From Segatella copri (lineage in GTDB: Bacteria > Bacteroidota > Bacteroidia > Bacteroidales > Bacteroidaceae), in assembly GCF_019249795.2 (NCBI RefSeq), contig NZ_CP156891.1, positions 1,568,001 to 1,632,000 of the forward strand: 64,000 nucleotides of DNA, given 5' to 3'. The translations under genes were made by a program, and so were the position numbers. Below, piece by piece: positions 1 through 9,660 of the stretch; the first letter of the stretch is position 1; each line of letters opens with the position of its first letter. Below the pieces are notes generated by a model. The model was not told the origin of the DNA. It searched no databases and saw nothing but the letters and a program-made list of their open reading frames with translations.

Positions 1-1643
1 AATGAGTTTTTGAGGATAATTGTATCACCTTCTATTTCTTTACTAACAGACTTGTTGTTGAAATCTATTCTATTTGTTTTGCGCAAAAACAACATAAATT
101 TAGGGTTATTGATAATTTCGTCAATCGCTAGACGATAGCCATCGTAACCTTCAATGTTATTCTTACCTAACAAAAGTGCTATAGCTACATTTGCTGACAT
201 GAAAGCATCTCCTAATTCTGCGGGATATGTATCTATCCAAATAGGTTCTAATTGCCATGGAATATCTGAAACACCTCGAAATCTACTACGTTCGCTATTA
301 TATTTTTGTAAGAATAAAGACTTCTGCTCATCGGTTGTCAATCTGTTGACTGAAAAATAAAAAGCATCAAAATCAGTAAATCTTTTATCACTTTTGTCAA
401 ATTTGAATTGATAACCACCAGTCTTTATAAAGACCTTACTAGAGTCTGTAAAAACAGATTTAAAGCCAATTCCCTTATATCCTGTTTTATTTTCATTTGC
501 TTTTTTTGTTCCATTAGCTGCGGATGTTATTGCATCAAAATCATCTTTATCAAAACTATAGCCATTATGAGAAACTATTAAATAATCACCATTTGTCTTG
601 ACTTTGATGCAAACGCCTTTTTGGGACGCTGCGTCATCTGCATTTTGCACTAATTCAAAAAACATTCTATCCTTTGAAGAGTACATGTTTTTTCCTACTT
701 CTTCCAACAAATGTGCCGTAGCAACATTACCAGCCGGAGAAGTAAATTTTTCAAAAGTCAAATTGACTCCTTCTTTATATGGATTTGGAGTTTCTTCAAA
801 TTCAGTCGCAAAGAATTGAAATAATTGATTCCGTTCTATTCGCTTAATTTGAGGAGTTAAACTTAGCGCAATTTTATAGAAATGTCCTTCTTCTATATTA
901 AAGTTTGCATTTGGTACTATAGCACGAAGATTATACCCATATATAGGATCTATCAAAAGCTTTCCTCTTTGATTTTCACTGCATGAGTATAAATTTACTA
1001 TGAACGTATATTTCCCATATTGCTTCGCTTCACCAATAAAGGTATTAGTATCATGTCCTGCGAACTTTAGAAGTTCATTCAAAGAAAGTTTGTAAAGAGA
1101 TTCTTCGTAAGGCTTTTCATTTAACAGCTTAGTACTGAAGAATAACTGATGATTTTCGTGTTTTATAAATACAGCTTTAAGCACTTCCCCTTCAAAAACA
1201 GAATCTTCTAATCTATCAATTTCATTCCAATTAGTATCCTCTTTGTTGATAATTCCTTTCAGCTCACCAAGTCTTATAATTACTTTATTCTTTTTCACTT
1301 GGATTACTTCTACTTCAAAGAAGGTGCCTGCTTCAAATTTATGCACAAAATCATCAATTAGAGCATCTTGGTATTCTTTTTCTTTAATCTTTTCTTGTTC
1401 TTTTTCAAACGTAAGAATGTCTGACAAAATAATCCCACGAGCTGTAATTTTACTAATTATAACTTCTATATCATCTCCAACATTAATAGTAATGTTTCCA
1501 TTTTCATCAAAGCAACTTGGCATTAAATAGTTGGGCATAAAACCAAATTGTTTTTGCCACAATGGGAAAAATGAGCAGAAACAACCATTGTCTTGAATCT
1601 TATTGATTCGTGTTTTTATTTTTTCTCCAACAGAATATTGCAT
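1..1643 (-). CDS. S1-S1-GHKL ATPase, C-terminus cut by window edge
   Basis: The frame opens at ATG 1643 and stays open to base 1, giving about 547 residues of a longer protein. Residues 1-75 and about 103-173 each look like S1/OB-type RNA-binding domains (VGEKIKTRINKIQDNGCFC, then GTFFEVEVIQVKKNKVIIRL). A GHKL (Hsp90/MutL/sacsin-type) ATPase follows: N-box FELVQNADDA at 329-338, a Gly motif SHNGYSF near 359, and the lid GYKGIGFKSVF at 388-398. The start lies 10 bp after the reverse transcriptase stop, so the two genes are almost certainly co-transcribed. GHKL ATPases of the sacsin/NOV sort are frequent in defence islands; an effector or sensor role here is inference. What lies C-terminal is outside the window. 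Confidence 0.85.
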   Translation of the reverse strand, partial: MQYSVGEKIKTRINKIQDNGCFCSFFPLWQKQFGFMPNYLMPSCFDENGNITINVGDDIEVIISKITARGIILSDILTFEKEQEKIKEKEYQDALIDDFVHKFEAGTFFEVEVIQVKKNKVIIRLGELKGIINKEDTNWNEIDRLEDSVFEGEVLKAVFIKHENHQLFFSTKLLNEKPYEESLYKLSLNELLKFAGHDTNTFIGEAKQYGKYTFIVNLYSCSENQRGKLLIDPIYGYNLRAIVPNANFNIEEGHFYKIALSLTPQIKRIERNQLFQFFATEFEETPNPYKEGVNLTFEKFTSPAGNVATAHLLEEVGKNMYSSKDRMFFELVQNADDAASQKGVCIKVKTNGDYLIVSHNGYSFDKDDFDAITSAANGTKKANENKTGYKGIGFKSVFTDSSKVFIKTGGYQFKFDKSDKRFTDFDAFYFSVNRLTTDEQKSLFLQKYNSERSRFRGVSDIPWQLEPIWIDTYPAELGDAFMSANVAIALLLGKNNIEGYDGYRLAIDEIINNPKFMLFLRKTNRIDFNNKSVSKEIEGDTIILKNS

Positions 1644-1653
1644 AATGAATATT

Positions 1654-3276
1654 TTAAATTGAATAATTTTCTAAATACATTCTTGTCTCCCTAAACGTAA
1701 TCACAGGCGTTACCTTCTTCAAAGTCTCAGGATTGACAATTTCTTCTATATGCAAGCCAGCCAATAGGTTAGGCTTCACCCACTCGTTGTTCCAGAGTTC
1801 CACGTTTTTATCCCCTGCAACGACACGGCACAATCTCATCTTATATGGTGATGTGCCATTTTCCTTGTCTTGCTGATATGTTATATTCTGAAGCCAAAGC
1901 TGGTTATAGTCGGAATTGGGTTGATTGCAGAGCTTGGAATAAACGAGATTGATGATAGTACTTTTCTCCTTTTCATCTTTTAAGGAATCTACCATTCTAC
2001 TAAGCACACGTAAGGCATAATGGCAACAACCTATATTTTCTAAAGCTATTTGGGCACATACTGCCGACATAGCTCGGATGCTGCCTCCTACAAGACGGCG
2101 TTGCTTCATGACTTTTTCGGTCTTCTGTTCTTCACCTTCAAGAAGAGGTATAGTTATTATTGTCTCTTCATAAGGTTTAAGCCAATCTATTATACGCTTA
2201 TCTATATCCGAAAGCATCATCTTAATGGAACCACTATCTTGATATTGGCGAGCGAACATCAAAATGTAGAGCAGATACTTTTCGAAACTATCAAAATCAC
2301 AACCCTTCTTATTAATTACAGGTGTATTGTAGATATATGCAAGTTTATCGGATTTGATAGCATCAGTAACAATACTCTCGCTAATCTTAGTCTTCTTGCT
2401 ATTCATGCGGAAGTTCAAACCCTCCAATACGTGTTGAAGTATGTAAGAAATCTTTTCGAGTTCATCCTTGTCGTTGCAGAATATGCGGTAGTCATCACGA
2501 TAGCGTATTATTTCGTACGAAGAAATGATGCCTTTCCTTTGTATTGCTTCATGTAGCAATAAATCAGAATAGCCAAGAATAATTTCACTTATAAAATCAA
2601 ATATTGCACATCCCTGAGGGATACCGATGTTGCGCCCTTGCTGAAAAGCGCGAAGATACTTTTGAATATTCTTAGCAATCGGATTTTCTGTTTTCTGCTC
2701 ATGCTCTGTATCTTTGAATGAGAATGCCCAATCAAATGCTTGCGGATTTACCGAGCCGTAGCAGTTTGTTATGTCTGTAACAAACATATAACGGTATTCG
2801 AGAGATAGTTCAATACTCCGTTGTTCCATAGAACTCCACCAATTAAGAATGGTGGTAGATTTATGAAATGATTCCCTATCCTTTGGAATAACAGGTAAAG
2901 CACATGATGTAATATGCGGAACCAGGAATCTCTCAAAAAGTTTCGTTATCAATGTCCAAGACTTCTCATTGCATATTTCTCTTACAAGGAAACAGTATAA
3001 GAATGGATTCGCCAGAATAATAGGACGAACTGCATATCTACCATCCTTATTGAGTAAGATGTCCAAATTCACTCCAGAAAGATTCTCTGGTGATAACCCC
3101 TCCTGTAAACATTCCTCGTATGTTTTATCTCCAACAGCTTCTTTTACATTCTGTAGAAGTTCATCAAACACAAAATACTCAGGGAGTTCAAATCCATGAT
3201 ATTGTTCTGATTTCAAAAAGAAATCCATTGCCTCCTTATGATTAAGGCTAAGTATATTTTTCGTTTTTTCATCCAT
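1654..3276 (-). CDS. stand-alone reverse transcriptase, Abi/UG (DRT-like) type
   Basis: A 540-residue protein with RT palm motifs: VTDITNCYGSV (first catalytic Asp 168), IPQGCAIFDFISE (PQG at 220-222), and IIRYRDDYRIF, where Y259-R260-D261-D262 is the catalytic YxDD box. It is followed by a thumb-like NSKKTKIS. There is no maturase/HNH domain and no retron msr/msd was recognised, so it is not an obvious group II intron or retron RT. The roughly 240-residue C-terminal part looks helical, as in Abi/DRT proteins. It is the middle gene of NusG-like, RT and GHKL, with 15-bp and 10-bp gaps. RTs of this kind are mostly phage-defence proteins. The exact UG/DRT class cannot be fixed by eye. Confidence 0.85.
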   Translation of the reverse strand: MDEKTKNILSLNHKEAMDFFLKSEQYHGFELPEYFVFDELLQNVKEAVGDKTYEECLQEGLSPENLSGVNLDILLNKDGRYAVRPIILANPFLYCFLVREICNEKSWTLITKLFERFLVPHITSCALPVIPKDRESFHKSTTILNWWSSMEQRSIELSLEYRYMFVTDITNCYGSVNPQAFDWAFSFKDTEHEQKTENPIAKNIQKYLRAFQQGRNIGIPQGCAIFDFISEIILGYSDLLLHEAIQRKGIISSYEIIRYRDDYRIFCNDKDELEKISYILQHVLEGLNFRMNSKKTKISESIVTDAIKSDKLAYIYNTPVINKKGCDFDSFEKYLLYILMFARQYQDSGSIKMMLSDIDKRIIDWLKPYEETIITIPLLEGEEQKTEKVMKQRRLVGGSIRAMSAVCAQIALENIGCCHYALRVLSRMVDSLKDEKEKSTIINLVYSKLCNQPNSDYNQLWLQNITYQQDKENGTSPYKMRLCRVVAGDKNVELWNNEWVKPNLLAGLHIEEIVNPETLKKVTPVITFRETRMYLENYSI

Positions 3277-3291
3277 TGATATTGTAATGAA

Positions 3292-4020
3292 TTAATATTC
3301 AACATACAATTTTACGGCATTCTTCGGTATGTAAGCTGTTGCCACAAAGCATTCGTCAAATATTTCAACAACCACCCTCTGTTGTCCTGCAATCCTTGCC
3401 ACTCTGCCATGAATATCTTTGAATTCACCTTCTGTCACTACGACCTCATCACCCAATTTAAACTTGATAATACCAGTTGTTACAGGAATTATATGCGAAT
3501 TCTTAATGGATGTGAGTTTGATGAAGTTGCTCATCGCATTATCTCGGATGGTGAGTGGAGGATTGTAATCAGGATTGTCTGGACAATGAATTGTGTGATC
3601 AAAGTAATAGCTGAGCAAGGCTCTGCTTTCATTTGCAACAACCCTATTGTCGTGAAGCAAGGTTTCTACTTGTTCTGCTGTAGCATAAACAAAGAGGAAT
3701 GAGGAGAGTAGAGGCTCTGTAATGATTCTCTTCTTCCCATGCTTCCTTACCTCTTTATATCGCAAAGGAACATAGCATTCCAATCCTTTAGCTTCAATAA
3801 ATGCTTTTGCCTTGATGATTCGCCCATACGAAACTCGTAGCACGAACCATTGCTTGTTTGCATCAAGCACGTTCTCTACCGACACCCCATCCTTGTTATT
3901 TTGGATGGAGGGCGTACAAGAGGTAAGTCTTGCACTTGGACACGATGAACCTGTGTCAGTAGGTTGCCCATTATACAATGAAGCATCAGCCATAAGAGGC
4001 TGATTGGCAGAATCTTCCAT
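3292..4020 (-). CDS. NusG-family (UpxY-like) specialised transcription antiterminator
   Basis: 242 residues. After a 55-residue low-complexity N-terminus comes an NGN domain (WFVLRVSYGRIIKAKAFIEA at 58-77, then CYVPLRYKEV), and a KOW domain at about 189-215 (LGDEVVVTEGEFKDIHGRV). This is the layout of UpxY proteins, the NusG paralogues that lead Bacteroides capsule operons and prevent premature termination along their own operon. Here the neighbours are not polysaccharide genes: the next two genes are a reverse transcriptase and a GHKL ATPase. It is the first gene behind a good promoter (4085-4113). By analogy it should let RNA polymerase read through the long downstream operon; that is inference. 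Confidence 0.85.
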   Translation of the reverse strand: MEDSANQPLMADASLYNGQPTDTGSSCPSARLTSCTPSIQNNKDGVSVENVLDANKQWFVLRVSYGRIIKAKAFIEAKGLECYVPLRYKEVRKHGKKRIITEPLLSSFLFVYATAEQVETLLHDNRVVANESRALLSYYFDHTIHCPDNPDYNPPLTIRDNAMSNFIKLTSIKNSHIIPVTTGIIKFKLGDEVVVTEGEFKDIHGRVARIAGQQRVVVEIFDECFVATAYIPKNAVKLYVEY

Positions 4021-4084
4021 TTTCGTTAAAGAATTAGATAAAACCAGTTGGTCTTTACTTTATAGAATTGCCGTTATTTAACTA

Positions 4085-4113
4085 CAAAAATAATAAAATT
4101 AAATTAGACCAAA
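4085..4113 (-). promoter_or_regulatory. promoter of the NusG-RT-GHKL operon
   Basis: On the minus strand TTTG (4113-4110) and TATTTTTG (4092-4085) are separated by 17 bp, matching the Bacteroidota TTTG/TAnnTTTG consensus with a slightly short spacer. The predicted start near 4078 leaves a 5' leader of about 58 nt before ATG 4020. Confidence 0.6.
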
Positions 4114-4304
4114 GAAGAAAATAAGAAAAAAGTAGAGATAACCAAATAATTTAACGTTTGTTTATGGTTCAAATAATTACATCTAATAAAACCCTGCTGG
4201 GGCAAAGCAGAAACAGATACTGCAATCGCCCTAGTCGTTATTCTTTCGATTTTTACCGATTTGTTGTTGGGAACACAACTTATAAAACAACGAAACTGGT
4301 TCAT
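4104..4304 (-). other. possible 66-codon ORF or conserved intergenic element
   Basis: The 319-bp gap between the antiterminator and the gene above it holds a 66-codon frame (MNQFRCFISCVPNNKS... IERITTRAIAVSVSALPQQ). From memory, very similar short hypothetical proteins recur across Bacteroidota, which would suggest a repeated DNA/RNA element rather than a protein gene. The stretch can also form small hairpins (CTGC/GCAG arms near 4193-4225). No promoter or ribosome-binding site of its own was found. Unproven either way. Confidence 0.3.
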
Positions 4305-4339
4305 TTCATTTTACAAGATAACACCAGCTACAACGGCAT

Positions 4340-4894
4340 TTATATCTGTGCCCCCTCTTTGCCTATGTCATCAAGAACCTGGGAGTAACATTGCTTGGTT
4401 CTGAAAAAGTCATTAAGAATCGCAGCAAGATAGGCTTTTGTATTTGGAATGTTGTGCATTAGCAAACATTGCAACTTAGACAGAATATAATAAGACTTTT
4501 CTTCCTCATACGACATATACAAGACCGTATTATGCCCTAATTGATTAGTACGATTAACTGCCTTTTTCATATTCTCTACATCTTGGATATTCTCCGAATC
4601 CACCATATCCCAATGAAGATCCCAAATTGTAATAAAGGCTGATTCGTTTGATGCCTCTATCATAAACTTCTCATTTTGATACGTGAAGTAAATGTCATCA
4701 TGCTCTATACGAACTTCACAATTAAGCTGCCGGAGCAACTCAAGACACAAGTCTCTAGTACCAATATTCTCATTGCTATCATTAGATGGCGAGATAGAAT
4801 TAACGATCTCATCCATCTCTTTTTCTGCTCTTTTCTGGCGGATGTAATACATTAAACTTATGCCAATCAATACTGAAATAATTGGTAACACCAT
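4340..4894 (-). CDS. membrane-anchored protein, unknown function
   Basis: 184 residues. One N-terminal membrane anchor (MVLPIISVLIGISLMYYI) is followed by a basic stop-transfer segment and an acidic soluble domain of about 150 residues. The soluble part has an alternating strand/helix pattern (CEVRIEHDDIYFTYQNEKFMI) reminiscent of YbjN/secretion-chaperone-like folds; that is only a resemblance. Its promoter is separate: TAACTTTG on the minus strand at 4939-4932. It is not tightly linked to the RT operon (319-bp gap), so a role in that system is uncertain. Confidence 0.6.
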   Translation of the reverse strand: MVLPIISVLIGISLMYYIRQKRAEKEMDEIVNSISPSNDSNENIGTRDLCLELLRQLNCEVRIEHDDIYFTYQNEKFMIEASNESAFITIWDLHWDMVDSENIQDVENMKKAVNRTNQLGHNTVLYMSYEEEKSYYILSKLQCLLMHNIPNTKAYLAAILNDFFRTKQCYSQVLDDIGKEGAQI

Positions 4895-5010
4895 AATTAT
4901 AATCTTTTTAAATTAATACTTTATGAGATGGCAAAGTTAGTTCTTTTTTTGCAAATAGATGTACAAACTCGGGAAAAACTTATCTCCACAAGCCTTGTGG
5001 AGCCTAAACA

Positions 5011-5042
5011 TTTGTAACATCTACCACCATTTATTATTTTTG
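5011..5042 (+). promoter_or_regulatory. promoter of the small membrane protein pair
   Basis: TTTG at 5011-5014 and TATTTTTG at 5035-5042 with a 20-bp spacer, an excellent match to the Bacteroidota consensus, about 25 bp upstream of a probable transcript start for the gene at 5074. Confidence 0.65.
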
Positions 5043-5073
5043 CAGCCAAAATAACAATAAAAATAATAGGAAT

Positions 5074-5259
5074 ATGGAAAGACTCTTTTTTTTCGTGATT
5101 GCCGTTGCGTTAGCATTCGGCGTTGGTTGCCTGGGAAGAAACAGAAAGATTGGTTTCGGATGGGCTTTTGGTATCTCACTCATCAATGTGGTGATTGGTC
5201 TCATTGTCGTATTATGCTCCAAGAAGAAAACGCCAAATGAGCTTGAAAAGAAGAACTAA
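5074..5259 (+). CDS. small two-helix membrane protein
   Basis: 61 residues: a first hydrophobic helix with a Gly-rich turn (FFFVIAVALAFGVGCLG), the polar link RNRKIGFG, a second helix (WAFGISLINVVIGLIVVLC) and a lysine-rich tail. It follows a strong promoter directly. The stop overlaps the start of the next gene by 23 bp, which suggests translational coupling. No family recognised; toxin-like, immunity-like or stress peptides are all possible. Confidence 0.55.
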   Translation: MERLFFFVIAVALAFGVGCLGRNRKIGFGWAFGISLINVVIGLIVVLCSKKKTPNELEKKN

Positions 5260-5398
5260 GTTGAAGATTTGGGGATGGGCATGTATTCTGATTGGAGTAA
5301 TTGGCTTTATCAGTATCATTATGCGTGGCAACCCAAACCTCGGACCGAGCGTTTGGGTTGCCATAGGAGTTTATTTGTTATCCAAGAAGAATACCTAA
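5237..5398 (+). CDS. small membrane protein, overlapping partner
   Basis: The chosen start is ATG 5237, giving 53 residues (MSLKRRTKLKIWGW...). It has a basic N-terminus, then a helix (WACILIGVIGFISIIM) and a second hydrophobic stretch (SVWVAIGVYLL). The frame is open upstream to 5195, but the internal ATG gives a classical positively charged membrane-protein N-terminus and a 23-bp overlap with the previous gene. Function unknown. Confidence 0.5.
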   Translation: MSLKRRTKLKIWGWACILIGVIGFISIIMRGNPNLGPSVWVAIGVYLLSKKNT

Positions 5399-5404
5399 GA
5401 AAAT

Positions 5405-6454
5405 TCACTTCCACTCCACAAGTTTTCTATCCAATGGTATCTTCTTGGGTTCGCCACGATTGCCATCAATGAAATAACTCCCGGCTAGACTTTCATCAAA
5501 CTGGAGAGTGAAGGCTTGGCGGATACGGGCACATTTCTCATTGATAGAATTAGACAATGGATTCGTCAGGGCTTCGATGCTCTGGCGAATCTTCTCTTCT
5601 GAAAGATGTGCCCCGTTGTTGTTCGATTTCTTGCGAATATCCACATAGATATCATATAGCTCTTCCCTATAATCCGACAGACATTTGAAAAGGATTCCCT
5701 CCTCATGACGCAAAAAGAGAATATACACCGCCTTTACCAATGGCTCCATCTTAATAGTCATATCATGATAGTCGGGCAGTATGATATCGTAATTCTCCAT
5801 GATGACCATTCTACTCAGATTCTTGGGTGGAAAGAGATACTGCTTCAGCACCCAATCGCTTACCCCACCAAGGCGTAAGTCCTGTACCTGTCGGTACACC
5901 TCCTTCATCTTCTGCCTGATATCATAGCTGAATGTTTCATCTGCCGGAATCGGTGTCGGATCAAATATACTGTATGGAAAATCATCGACAGAGCTGAACA
6001 TCACTTTGCAATCCGGCAACTTATCATACGCAGCCTGCATCAATGGCATAAAATCCTCATCTTCCTCTATAGACAAAGAATAGGAATTGACATAATATAT
6101 GCCATCCTCCTCATGGTCTAGCTGTAAGATGCTAGGATGTAATTTCTCCTTATTCTTTTCTTCTACCAATTGCGACAACAGCAAATCGGAAGGAACAGAG
6201 ATGTTCAAATCCTCTTTATTCATCGCAGGATAGCTGTAGAGAGCTGTCTTCCTGATATGAGGACCCAGAAATGGAAAATAATTAAAATGAATTGACTTGC
6301 TGATAAACAAGTTGTTGATATCCAGGAGATGGTTGATGATGGAAAGGTTCAACTTTTCATCATACCCATTCTCTACAAAGAATATCTCGCCATGTAGGCG
6401 TGTTGGGAAGTCGCGAAACTTCAATACCTTTTTTCTTCCAATCTTTCCGGTCAT
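5405..6454 (-). CDS. hypothetical cytosolic protein, 349 residues
   Basis: No signal peptide, membrane helix or motif that I recognise. The protein is rich in charged and aromatic residues (LHGEIFFVENGYDEK, EEDGIYYVNSYSLSIEEDEDF), with a helical C-terminal third. Its stop lies 6 bp from the stop of the convergent small gene. About 110 bp upstream is a promoter followed at once by a terminator-like hairpin, so expression may depend on readthrough. Codon use is AT-rich like the accessory genes around it. Confidence 0.6.
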   Translation of the reverse strand: MTGKIGRKKVLKFRDFPTRLHGEIFFVENGYDEKLNLSIINHLLDINNLFISKSIHFNYFPFLGPHIRKTALYSYPAMNKEDLNISVPSDLLLSQLVEEKNKEKLHPSILQLDHEEDGIYYVNSYSLSIEEDEDFMPLMQAAYDKLPDCKVMFSSVDDFPYSIFDPTPIPADETFSYDIRQKMKEVYRQVQDLRLGGVSDWVLKQYLFPPKNLSRMVIMENYDIILPDYHDMTIKMEPLVKAVYILFLRHEEGILFKCLSDYREELYDIYVDIRKKSNNNGAHLSEEKIRQSIEALTNPLSNSINEKCARIRQAFTLQFDESLAGSYFIDGNRGEPKKIPLDRKLVEWK

Positions 6455-6555
6455 TGCTTATCACTTGTTATATGGTTGATTACAGTATTGTACATGTCAG
6501 AGCTATCTTCTTCTGCATTTATCGAATAGCTAAATACTGAACATGGCAAAAAGAC

Positions 6556-6646
6556 AAAAAAAAGACTCACCCTGAGCGCGCTGTTCTAAAGGGAAGCGGG
6601 GTGAGTATGTTGCTACAAAGGTACAAATGTTATTCGAAACAACAAA
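6556..6646 (-). promoter_or_regulatory. promoter plus immediate terminator hairpin (attenuator or tiny sRNA)
   Basis: On the minus strand TTTG (6646-6643), a 19-bp spacer and TACCTTTG (6623-6616) form a near-ideal promoter. Its predicted start (about 6610) is followed at once by a hairpin with perfect 8-bp arms, ACTCACCC at 6606-6599 and GGGTGAGT at 6572-6565, and then eight T residues (6563-6556 after CT). The product would be an RNA of about 55 nt, or a leader that must be read through to reach the gene starting at 6454. Confidence 0.5.
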
Positions 6647-6828
6647 ACTTTTAGCTAAAAAGTTTCGAAAAAAGTTATGTGAGGGGACACTATCGTAAAA
6701 AGGAAGGTATCTGCGGAACATGATTCTTCCAACAAAAGGGATGAGGCTATAATGATATTTAGAAAGAAGTACGCAAGCGATAAAGAACCAATAAATATAC
6801 GCACGTATAAATCTTTTTTCTTCGAAAA

Positions 6829-6964
6829 AAGTATCAAAGTCTCATTTTTGGGTATAAAATAAGACTTATATCTTTAATACACAACACCTTAACATAAATG
6901 AGACTTCTCTGAAAATGCAGATAGAAGTATCATCGAAGTATCATAAATTAGGGAGAAGTATCAT
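6829..6964. repeat. upstream iteron cluster of the VapE module
   Basis: Three copies of (A/C)GAAGTATCAT lie at 6923-6933, 6934-6944 and 6954-6964 (spacings 11 and 20 bp), in reverse orientation to the downstream cluster. A forward copy ATGAGACTTCT is at 6898-6908, and AAGTATCAAAGTCTCATTTT at 6829-6848 mirrors a motif at 9783-9799. The rest of the 634-bp gap 6455-7088 shows no convincing gene. Confidence 0.7.
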
Positions 6965-7088
6965 GATTTCTTGCTTGCATCGAAAAAAAATGCTTTATGA
7001 AGTGATAATAATACCGTTTGCAAGGCAATAAACAGGATGTATTTGCGTTTAGTAAAACAGAATGTTTTATTCTTAATACTTAAGAAAC

Positions 7089-7544
7089 ATGGATGAAAAG
7101 GAATTACTGAAAAAGGCTTTTGAGTACGGAAACGTACCTAGCAACATCACCTACTGTTTCACCGAACCATGTCCGATGAAAAACAAATGTATCCACTATC
7201 TATCCGGTCTCTACAAAAACGAGAAGACAGATAGAGGGGATGCCATTTTCCCAAATGCCCTGAAAAACGGAGAATGCAAGTACTTCGCACCGCTGCGTGT
7301 CGTGAAAATGGCATGGGGATTCGACCATCTCTTTACCGAAATGAAAGTGAAAGACGCTCCTGCACTGCGCGCCGAAATGAGAGACTACCTCGGTAGCAAA
7401 GGACAATACTACCGTTACAAACTGGGACAACTGAAACTCCTGCCGGAACAACAGGCATATATCAAACAGCTCTTCGCCAGATACGGATATAAAGATGTTG
7501 AATTCGACCATTTCTCAGAAGAGATTGATTTCACTAAAAGCTAA
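7089..7544 (+). CDS. small Cys-containing protein, DUF6078-like
   Basis: 151 residues with an early cysteine cluster (YCFTEPCPMKNKCIHYLSG, then NGECKYFAPLR) that could bind a metal, and a helical C-terminal half with a conserved-looking GSKGQYYRYKLGQLKLLP. I associate such proteins with the DUF6078 family of Bacteroidales, from memory. It sits between the upstream iterons and the VapE-type gene, same strand, so it is probably part of that module. Function unknown. Confidence 0.6.
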   Translation: MDEKELLKKAFEYGNVPSNITYCFTEPCPMKNKCIHYLSGLYKNEKTDRGDAIFPNALKNGECKYFAPLRVVKMAWGFDHLFTEMKVKDAPALRAEMRDYLGSKGQYYRYKLGQLKLLPEQQAYIKQLFARYGYKDVEFDHFSEEIDFTKS

Positions 7545-7773: not shown

Positions 7774-9660
7774 ATGAAGGTAACAATCGTTCATACAAAC
7801 AACAAGAAGCAGCTCCTCGTCAGCACCAAGACGATGGAGAAGTTGCTGGAGCGCATCGCTAAGGATGACAGCAAGAATACTGTTACCCATTTCCGTGAAT
7901 ATGTGCCCCATATGGAAAACAACTACGAGTATTACAAGGATATGCCAACATGGATGCACATCTACCCCGCTGCTGAATTCGCCAAAGACGAAAACAACAA
8001 CCTGAAGATGAAGGCGTGCAATGGTATCCTGCTGCTGAAATTCGGAAACATCACAGATGCAGACGGCGTGGAGGGCGTGAAGCGCTCGGTTGCCATGCTG
8101 CCTTCTACCTTTGCTGCGTTGGAAGGTGCTGATGGTAAGTCGGTTATCGTATTGGTGAAATTCAGCAATGAAGATGACTTGCTGCCTGCTGAGGAGGCGG
8201 ATGCCGAACGACTGTACCGCATCGCTTACCAGCAGATTCTGCCTGTATATCAGGCGATTGCCAAGGCTTCGGTGCTCACAGACGGACCGAAACCTTCTAT
8301 AGAAGCGGGCGCAAACCTGTCTTTTGAGCCTTCGATGCACAACAGTTTTATGATGACGCTCGATGCGAAACCTTATTTCAACAGTAAGGCGGTGGCGATG
8401 AAAATTGACAGCAACATGCACCCTCAGAACCAAGCTTTCAACACGGAAGATAATCAGCAGATGAATCTTGGCTCCGATACTTCGGAAGAAGAAAAGAAAG
8501 TTGACAAGAATAGCGTTCGCGAGAATATCATGAGCATGATGCAGCTGCTGAAAAGCAAATATAACTTCAGATACAACACGGTGATGAAATTCGTGGAATA
8601 CATGCCGAAAGAGAAAGGCTGGTATGGTTTCCAGCCCGTAGATCCGAGAGTGCAGAAGCGCATGACGCTGGAGGTGCAGCTCGCTGATATCCGGGTGAGC
8701 ATCAAGGATGTCAGGAATTTTCTAGAGTCTGATTACATCAAGAATTATAATCCGATAGATGAATATCTCTTCCAATGCTACGACAAATGGGACGGGAAGG
8801 ACCATATACGTGCCTTGGCTCGTACGGTTCCTACCAACAATCCTTACTGGGCAGACTGGTTCTACACCTGGTTTCTGGGCATGGTTGACCAGTGGCGCGG
8901 CTTTACCCATCGCCAGTATGGCAACTCGGTGGCTCCGCTTCTGATTTCCAAGCAGGGTTACAACAAGAGTACTTTCTGTCGCCGGCTGTTACCGCCGGAA
9001 CTGCAGTGGGGATATAACGATAATCTGATTCTGTCAGAAAAACGTCAGGTTTATCAGGCGATGGCGCAGTTTATGGTTATCAATCTCGATGAGTTCAACC
9101 AGATTTCTCCACAGATGCAGCAGGGATTCCTGAAGAACCTCATCCAGTTGCCTACGCTGAAATACAAGCCTCCGTATGGTAGTCATGTCATGGAATTTCC
9201 TCGTCTCGCCTCGTTCATCGCCACGAGCAACATCACGGATATTCTCACCGATCCATCCGGCAACCGAAGATTCATCGGTGTGGAACTGACGGGACCGATC
9301 GATGTGAGTGTGCGTCCGAACTATCAGCAACTTTTCGCCCAGGCGCTGACTGCTTTGCACAATGGCGAGAAGAGTTATTTTGATGCAGAACAGGTGAAGT
9401 TGATCATGAAGAACAACTGCCAGTTTGAGGTGGCTGAGCCGATAGACCAGTATTTCCAGCTCTATTTTGATTTGATTGAGAATGAGAAAGAGGGTGAATA
9501 TCTGACTGCCGCCGAGATTTTCGACTATCTGAAAAAGCAGATAGGTTCATCGCTCAAGGTGAACAGTTTGATGGGATTCGGCAGAAAACTGGCGAATATG
9601 AGTGAGTTAAAACATAAGAGATTTGCAGATGGGATGAAGTATCTTGTAAAGAAAAAGTGA
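7774..9660 (+). CDS. VapE/VirE-type primase-helicase-like protein
   Basis: 628 residues. The N-terminal half resembles BT4734/VirE N-terminal domains (TMEKLLERIAKDDSKNTVTHFRE...), a primase-like fold. The C-terminal half is a virulence-associated E ATPase: LLISKQGYNKSTFCRRLLPP is a degenerate P-loop (Asn where the last Gly is usual), MVINLDEFNQISPQMQQGFLK is a Walker B-like segment, and LASFIATSNITDILTDPSGNRRF is a sensor/arginine region. Such proteins are typical replication proteins of phage satellites, plasmids and integrative elements in Bacteroidota. Iteron clusters flank the gene pair on both sides, which fits a replication module. No integrase, capsid or relaxase gene is nearby. Confidence 0.8.
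   Translation: MKVTIVHTNNKKQLLVSTKTMEKLLERIAKDDSKNTVTHFREYVPHMENNYEYYKDMPTWMHIYPAAEFAKDENNNLKMKACNGILLLKFGNITDADGVEGVKRSVAMLPSTFAALEGADGKSVIVLVKFSNEDDLLPAEEADAERLYRIAYQQILPVYQAIAKASVLTDGPKPSIEAGANLSFEPSMHNSFMMTLDAKPYFNSKAVAMKIDSNMHPQNQAFNTEDNQQMNLGSDTSEEEKKVDKNSVRENIMSMMQLLKSKYNFRYNTVMKFVEYMPKEKGWYGFQPVDPRVQKRMTLEVQLADIRVSIKDVRNFLESDYIKNYNPIDEYLFQCYDKWDGKDHIRALARTVPTNNPYWADWFYTWFLGMVDQWRGFTHRQYGNSVAPLLISKQGYNKSTFCRRLLPPELQWGYNDNLILSEKRQVYQAMAQFMVINLDEFNQISPQMQQGFLKNLIQLPTLKYKPPYGSHVMEFPRLASFIATSNITDILTDPSGNRRFIGVELTGPIDVSVRPNYQQLFAQALTALHNGEKSYFDAEQVKLIMKNNCQFEVAEPIDQYFQLYFDLIENEKEGEYLTAAEIFDYLKKQIGSSLKVNSLMGFGRKLANMSELKHKRFADGMKYLVKKK

What the first reader, a model, noticed from the sequence alone, without database searches (positions are those of the whole stretch)
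1..4113. Antiterminator, reverse transcriptase and S1-GHKL ATPase in one operon: candidate new defence system
Seen: one promoter, then a NusG/UpxY-like protein, an RT with an unusual YRDD catalytic box, and a protein with two S1-like domains plus a GHKL ATPase, with gaps of only 15 and 10 bp. Known: stand-alone Abi/UG RTs are mostly anti-phage, GHKL ATPases recur in defence islands, and UpxY proteins normally lead capsule operons. Inference: a dedicated antiterminator controls a long RT-based defence operon. An RNA-binding GHKL ATPase would read the RT's nucleic-acid product or guide. I do not know this trio as a described system.
Basis: partly seen in the sequence, partly recalled or inferred. 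Interest (0 to 1): 0.85.

Follow-up and report, generated by a model that had tools for sequence, protein, structure and literature searches.

The report
Swappable defence operon led by reverse transcriptase
This is the front end of a probable bacterial anti-virus operon in which a shared promoter, sometimes an antiterminator, and a known type of reverse transcriptase stay put while the weapons behind them are swapped; the three genes seen here are one such combination, not a fixed new system.

Summary
In detail: UpxY antiterminator, reverse transcriptase (RT) with YRDD, and an S1+GHKL ATPase lie in one minus-strand operon with gaps of 15 and 10 bp. The reading as a dedicated new trio does not. 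The RT is Abi-P2-type: it matches that family over its full length, YRDD is that family's normal box, and the mapped priming tyrosine is conserved. Its closest relatives form a UpxY-RT clade of four loci with four different downstream cargos. The window's S1-GHKL is closest (70%) to a locus with no RT. Across the RT tree the ATPase label changes almost as often as if shuffled. The usual partner of the ATPase is an SF1 helicase, fused to a PIN nuclease in the S1-type loci scanned; it is predicted just beyond the window's left end. What is shared lies upstream: a promoter-leader box heads many different defence-like operons in this bacterial family, many ending in a Schlafen-type protein plus an Xre regulator. 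Eight loci (two near-identical pairs among them) keep the leader but only a stump of the RT, with sharp DNA breakpoints. Best reading: an exchangeable defence cassette with a common regulatory head. Defence function, operator binding and antitermination are inferred, not shown.

The parts
4065..4092 (-). promoter and leader box: -7 type box TATTTTTG (4092-4085), then the 24-base shared box (4088-4065) with a degenerate GTCA-N5-TGAC palindrome
   Evidence: shared by 17 of 42 leaders at up to 6 edits, against 0.2 per set of mono-shuffles; leave-one-out PWM score 22.6
3292..4020 (-). UpxY-family (NusG-like) transcription antiterminator, 242 aa
   Evidence: NCBIfam NF033644 3.2e-32, above cut-off; Pfam NusG 9.8e-9
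1654..3276 (-). Abi-P2-type reverse transcriptase, 540 aa; Y259-R-D-D; Tyr34 aligned to the mapped priming Tyr61 of Abi-P2
   Evidence: PADLOC AbiP2 2.3e-162, residues 3-538; next family RT_UG14 5.8e-37; PDB 7r08 8.7e-78
3..1643 (-). first 547 aa of an S1-S1-GHKL (sacsin-like, Tiamat-like) ATPase, cut by the window edge; S1-type relatives are about 1850-2050 aa
   Evidence: Pfam S1 and SACS, NCBIfam P_loop_sacsin 3.5e-22, PADLOC TmtA 5.3e-60 over residues 299-544 only; 69.7% identical over 545 aa to L169
6635..6635 (.). point right of which the window is collinear with the nearest held genome G001; the stretch left of it has no counterpart at that place in G001
   Evidence: blastn 92% from 6635 rightwards, other genes to the left in G001; RT and ATPase without a match in G001

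Best explanation
The window holds the front of an exchangeable defence cassette of Prevotella-like Bacteroidales. A conserved promoter-leader drives it. UpxY, made first, probably rides RNA polymerase and keeps a long transcript going. The Abi-P2-type RT is a first weapon: by analogy with solved Abi-P2 it links DNA to its own tyrosine and makes untemplated single-stranded DNA, leading to abortive infection. Behind it sits a swappable module, here an S1-GHKL ATPase whose usual partner elsewhere is an SF1 helicase, fused to a PIN nuclease in the S1-type loci scanned; together probably an RNA-directed effector pair. Comparable cassettes often end with a Schlafen-type protein and an Xre regulator that may bind the palindrome in the leader. 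Shown by comparison: anatomy, shared leader, RT class, exchange of cargo. Inferred: antitermination, repression, defence, enzyme activities, and everything left of base 1.
For: RT class; priming and untemplated synthesis in Abi-P2: PMC9508834, passages seen. Cargo exchange: the four-member UpxY-RT clade (100/99 support) has four cargos; the GHKL label needs 6 changes for 7 rows, shuffled mean 6.6, 167 of 500 shuffles as low. DNA breakpoints: L040 and L070 are 91.9% identical over 3242 bp up to +240 in the RT, then no further match in the compared 6 kb; L059/L066 91.7% to +445; L066/L073 92.6% to +156. Leader: 24 places in 301 family genomes against 2 for the reversed pattern. Unseeded check: 6 of 14 loci found by the Xre protein alone have the leader upstream (scores 24.8-31.1; best antisense 12.4). 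An SF1 helicase follows in 10 of 12 GHKL loci whose next gene was read; PIN domain in the 4 S1-type loci scanned.
Against: The window ends before the operon does, so its helicase, Schlafen and Xre genes are predictions. L047 and L132 have a GHKL gene without that helicase next to it. 8 of the 14 unseeded Xre loci lack the leader, and 11 of 31 lack the Schlafen protein. Most RTs of the group have no leader: 13 of 34 intact, interrupted or cut loci with upstream sequence have it, and these partly trained the model. The window's own palindrome is degenerate. All cargo labels together are more clustered on the tree than shuffles (19 changes, shuffled mean 24.1), so exchange is not free. Nothing here tests transcription or phage resistance.
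Confidence: 0.72

Rival explanations
1. A dedicated three-part system: the antiterminator, RT and S1-GHKL work only together, the ATPase reading the RT's nucleic acid.
For: Tight gaps, shared promoter; S1-GHKL follows the RT in the window and three other loci; S1/CSD domains in 8 of 24 RT-led cargos against 0 (or 1 weak) of 18 RT-less leader-led ones, one-sided Fisher p 0.006 (0.03), rows not independent and the CSD case found only by a Pfam scan not made on all RT-less cargos; a different RT type (UG19) precedes a GHKL gene in L173.
Against: Same UpxY-RT clade with four cargos; no second trio among the 45 loci; S1-GHKL plus helicase without RT in L168 and L169, the latter the window's nearest relative among 13 loci compared; RTs standing alone.
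Confidence: 0.08
2. Ordinary defence island: independent genes collected at a cargo slot of mobilizable elements, with no functional or regulatory bond.
For: A Mob_Pre relaxase gene lies just upstream of the leader in L012 (1.1e-23); the gene at that place in L040 matches Mob_Pre only below its cut-off (22.5 of 25.5 bits), and genes similar to these precede several other leaders. Cargo mixtures differ widely; neighbouring R-M and TOTE genes.
Against: A shared leader sits at the same place before unlike cargos, in sense orientation, and was found again starting from the Xre end; in leader-bearing RT loci the next gene is co-directional within 150 bp in 12 of 13, against 8 of 18 without leader.
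Confidence: 0.15
3. Capsule-type locus: the UpxY marks a degraded or atypical polysaccharide operon.
Against: The genes next to UpxY and RT in the window, L032 and L033 are an ATPase, TOTE-type proteins and an S1-helicase by Pfam, in L031 a Schlafen piece and Xre gene.
Confidence: 0.02

Closest known systems
Abi-P2 (abortive-infection RT of the DRT/UG group)
   Same: full-length match, YRDD box, priming tyrosine, C-terminal region aligned
   Different: here often first gene of a long operon behind a shared leader; PMC8934634 (passages seen) mentions Abi-P2 beside a phage P2-like setting and a type I-C CRISPR locus, not this one
Tiamat (TmtA) GHKL ATPase
   Same: ATPase region matches TmtA profiles
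   Different: N-terminal S1 domains, relatives of about 1860 aa, and a usual SF1-helicase neighbour; Tiamat as a single-gene system is recalled
Mokosh (MkoA) helicase
   Same: SF1 helicase part of the ATPase's partner matches MkoA profiles
   Different: only the helicase region matches; a PIN domain is fused in the S1-type loci scanned
Schlafen-histidine-kinase-wHTH proteins of BREX and related systems (PMC12839542, passages seen)
   Same: terminal gene of many of these cassettes has SLFN_AlbA_2 plus HATPase_c_4
   Different: here next to an Xre regulator and behind a shared leader; BREX genes were not looked for
UpxY-headed capsule loci of Bacteroides (recalled)
   Same: antiterminator at the head of a long variable operon
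   Different: cargo is defence-like, not polysaccharide synthesis

Membership tests
Abi-P2 RT | best family by profile, over the full length | tested here: met
   PADLOC AbiP2 2.3e-162, next RT_UG14 5.8e-37
Abi-P2 RT | priming Tyr61 (PMC9508834) | tested here: met
   aligned to Tyr34, invariant in the 7 RTs of A1; chain numbering checked by Tyr282 falling on the Y of YRDD
Abi-P2 RT | trimer, protein-primed untemplated DNA synthesis | not testable with these tools
   needs biochemistry
Abi-P2 RT | confers phage resistance | not testable with these tools
   needs phage plating
UpxY antiterminator | family model above its curated cut-off | tested here: met
   NF033644 111.8 bits, cut-off 100
UpxY antiterminator | heads a capsule operon (recalled) | tested here: not met
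   RT and ATPase follow as far as the window reaches
Tiamat | TmtA GHKL ATPase domain | tested here: met
   PDLC03972 5.3e-60 on residues 299-544
Tiamat | full-length TmtA architecture, single gene (recalled) | tested here: not met
   S1 N-terminus; relative L168 matches TmtA in stretches only; SF1 helicase next door in 10 of 12 GHKL loci read
dedicated UpxY-RT-S1-GHKL system | trio conserved across homologues | tested here: not met
   no second trio among the 45 genome-contig loci; cargo varies in the RT's own clade

The most novel reading that the evidence does not exclude
The leader, UpxY and Abi-P2 RT form a constant trigger head: the RT senses infection and its covalent DNA (or an RNA it holds) is read by interchangeable S1/CSD-bearing effectors, so that one sensor serves many weapons, much as retron RTs serve many effectors. 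The higher share of S1/CSD domains in RT-led cargo and an independent RT-GHKL neighbourhood (UG19, L173) are compatible with it.
Probability: 0.15. Interest if true: 0.88.

Novelty: new variant of a known kind. Interest (0 to 1): 0.56.

Why it matters
If right, Prevotella-like bacteria keep defence genes in cassettes with a common regulatory head and swap the weapon behind it. That gives a short DNA handle, the leader box, for finding unknown defence modules without protein homology, and makes testable whether a single regulator switches many unlike systems. It also places the little-understood Abi-P2 RT at the head of long operons rather than only as a lone gene.

Tried and rejected
Own assembly: not held, so the operon could not be extended left. 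Viral contigs gave one locus, with the same gene coordinates as L045. Rfam over window 1-7200: one match at E 0.3 (22.4 bits, gathering 70), in coding sequence. tRNA as insertion site: none in the window. Sigma-70 scan: 23 sites against 25.4 expected. First leader regular expression was too strict and was replaced. AlphaFold of the ATPase C-terminal half (L042 residues 901-1862, 5 sequences): mean pLDDT 64, pTM 0.35, too poor, so no fold search was made. Pfam on that half: nothing at E 0.01. Leader pattern in 384 genomes of the order: 27 places, all with 2 mismatches, against 13 in the control, so twice the control but no better match; the family sample has 24 against 2, of which 7 with 0-1 mismatch. 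Several of the 24 look like chance (inside genes), read by eye. Xre survey: 59 places listed, 48 examined, the 11 weakest left out; one of the 48 (L045) was read on a stretch ending 1.5 kb before its Xre gene. The GHKL label in the tree lumps S1-bearing (window, L034, L042, L049) and S1-less (L038, L040, L047) ATPases. The leader PWM was trained on RT-locus and leaders, so only the six unseeded hits are independent. Other GHKL hits that match the ATPase region alone (the rest; G320 and G434) were not read for neighbours. Paper searches: the listings (the last empty) show no description of a shared leader, Schlafen-Xre cassette or UpxY with defence, and those none of an Abi-P2 RT with these partners; the library lacks most subscription papers, and one recalled UG/Abi survey was not held. 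In PMC11834463 (rumen defence systems, passages seen) the terms AbiP2, Tiamat and Mokosh do not occur.
Full report
What is there. Window 1-4113 holds, on the minus strand, a UpxY-family antiterminator (4020-3292), an RT (3276-1654) and the first 547 aa of an S1-S1-GHKL ATPase (from 1643, cut by the window edge), with gaps of 15 and 10 bp. Three ATPase motif regions (QNADDA, HNGYSF, TGYKGIGFKS) are readable; their roles are recalled.

The RT is Abi-P2-type. It matches PADLOC AbiP2 at 2.3e-162 over residues 3-538; the next family is RT_UG14 at 5.8e-37. A profile of seven relatives matches the solved chain 7r08 at 8.7e-78, in two stretches that include the C-terminal region, and that chain has the same RYRDDYR. 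The paper on AbiK and Abi-P2 (PMC9508834, passages seen) names Tyr61 as needed for priming and Tyr282 as an AbiK counterpart. Counted on the alignment, Tyr282 is the Y of YRDD, and Tyr61 aligns to Tyr34 of the window RT, invariant in the seven. So YRDD is the family norm. More distant relatives lie on 118 plasmid records, all under 60% identity; the ten rows shown are 27-32% identical, from lactobacilli, Pediococcus, Paracoccus, E. coli and Klebsiella.

Where its relatives sit. 9 of 301 genomes of the family carry a homologue, six of them at 46% identity or more. A scan of 84,980 species genomes gave 45 loci, read: 31 with a full-length or nearly full-length RT, 2 interrupted (L059, L063), 2 cut by the contig end (L064, L065) and 10 with only an N-terminal or broken remnant (L066-L075). 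Some of these are the loci again. Downstream of the RT lie unlike modules: S1-GHKL plus SF1 helicase (L034, L042, L049), S1-less GHKL ATPases (L038, L040, L047), four-S1 protein plus SF1 helicase (L045, L046), S1-helicase-Ppx/GppA (L033), TOTE-type helicase and S1CSD protein (L032), NOV_C proteins (L039, L052), DEAD-UvrD helicase (L036), PLD nuclease (L016), or nothing on that strand.

Cargo is exchanged rather than co-inherited. In a 36-row RT tree the window RT groups with L031 (85% identical), L032 and L033 (100/99 support): the UpxY-RT loci. Their cargos differ in all four cases: S1-GHKL, only a Schlafen piece and Xre gene, TOTE-type, and S1-helicase-Ppx. The GHKL label (7 rows) needs 6 changes against a shuffled mean of 6.6, 167 of 500 shuffles being as low; against free exchange, all labels together are more clustered than shuffles (19 changes against 24.1). 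Among 13 loci compared, the window's S1-GHKL is nearest, 69.7% over 545 aa, to L169, which has a helicase-PIN gene and an Xre gene but no RT and no leader in 19.5 kb; L169 carries an in-frame TAG. DNA comparisons show sharp breakpoints inside the RT: L040 and L070 are 91.9% identical from -2999 to +240 of the RT, then match no more in the compared 6 kb, L040 continuing into an intact RT and an ATPase, L070 into a helicase operon. Similar breaks lie near +445 (L059/L066) and +156 (L066/L073). L066 and L067, and L069 and L070, are near-copies. L121 has a leader followed by an RT-like start of a dozen residues, by eye.

What goes with the ATPase. Where the gene after a GHKL gene was read, an SF1 helicase follows in 10 of 12: L034, L038, L040, L042, L049, L168-L172; not L047 or L132; L173 ends at the contig end. 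PIN_4 was found in L012 (the locus of L049), L034, L168 and L169 and not in L170; the other five were not scanned. This predicts the next gene left of the window. The S1-GHKL family is large: 490 proteins at E 1e-10 or better among the 7994 candidates scored, the 120 best listed.

A shared leader. Upstream of the RT, or of UpxY, lies a -7 type box, TAnnTTTG, followed by roughly TCAAAATATGACAATTC. 17 of 42 leaders show it with up to 6 edits; 0.2 expected from mono-shuffles, 8 of 900 in random pieces of the same loci. With a weight matrix it stands before the RT or its UpxY in 13 of 34 loci with upstream sequence (intact, interrupted or cut; L016 included, L055 and L058 left out) and in 8 of 10 remnants (these partly trained the matrix). 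The window's copy scores 22.6 with itself left out. In 301 family genomes a pattern with up to 2 mismatches hits 24 places, reversed control 2; one of them heads an RT directly. Of the others, those that look real head operons with HNH, LRR-kinase, helicase, RNase-T-like, DUF1848 or unknown genes. Many end with a SLFN_AlbA_2 plus HATPase_c_4 protein and a 95-97 aa Xre protein. A Mob_Pre gene precedes the leader in L012; the gene in that place in L040 is a sub-threshold Mob_Pre match, and similar genes precede several more. In the order as a whole the pattern is only twice the control, with no match under 2 mismatches.

Check from the other end. The Xre protein was searched alone: 53 of 301 genomes, 59 places; 48 were examined. 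For those at E 2e-28 or better with at least 5 kb upstream, 15 of 23 have the leader in sense. Of the 14 not found earlier by leader or RT, 6 have it with scores 24.8-31.1, against a best antisense score of 12.4; 8 do not. A Schlafen-type gene lies within 2.6 kb upstream in 20 of 31 with at least 1.6 kb. Among the 10 more distant Xre proteins examined (one with only 426 bp upstream), 0 have the Schlafen gene and 0 a leader above 20.

How it probably works. UpxY needs a leader and a long operon, and has both in the relatives; antitermination is inferred. The palindrome over the start site and the distal Xre gene suggest autoregulation, inferred. The Schlafen-kinase-wHTH type is described as a back-up suicidal RNase in BREX systems (PMC12839542, passages seen), so it may be an effector rather than a regulator. 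The RT and the ATPase-helicase pair look like two separate weapons under one switch. A functional bond is not excluded: S1 or CSD domains occur in 8 of 24 RT-led cargos (6 of 23 by profile, plus L032 and the window by Pfam) and 0, or 1 weak, of 18 RT-less leader-led ones (Fisher 0.006 or 0.03). But related ATPases are counted several times, the S1 profile came from RT-led proteins, and Pfam was not run on all RT-less cargos.

Setting. From base 6635 rightwards the window is largely collinear with the nearest held genome, G001 (92-97%); left of it G001 has other genes, TerD-like by eye, and G001 has no match to the RT or ATPase, so the operon lies in a variable region. No tRNA and no Rfam family at its threshold mark it.

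Noticed in passing
L173:1-7313: A UG19-type RT (PADLOC 9.6e-104), a 214-aa protein and a GHKL ATPase lie in a row: an independent RT-GHKL neighbourhood with another RT family.
   Followed up: partly
L169:6402-11558: The S1-GHKL closest to the window's is interrupted by an in-frame TAG; a helicase-PIN gene, an Xre gene and methyltransferase-like genes (by eye) follow.
   Followed up: no
L119:1571-3187: A TOTE archaeo-eukaryotic primase-helicase gene directly follows the Xre gene.
   Followed up: no
L031:862-1558: The UpxY gene beside this RT is split into three open frames in this MAG.
   Followed up: no
L101 (leader at 2480) / L016: Leader heads five genes, two of them dual-OB-like and one TerB-like (by eye), then the RT, then a PLD nuclease: here the RT is not first.
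   Followed up: partly
window 7774-9660: VapE-like protein with BT4734-like_N and DUF3874, with diverged copies elsewhere in G001.
   Followed up: no
L066-L070, L072-L074: RT stumps behind a leader, followed in most by unrelated large cargo.
   Followed up: yes
L170:1811-6685, L171:12243-15281: GHKL-helicase pairs beside a type IIG restriction-methylation gene (L170, PADLOC) and, by eye, a similar gene in L171.
   Followed up: no
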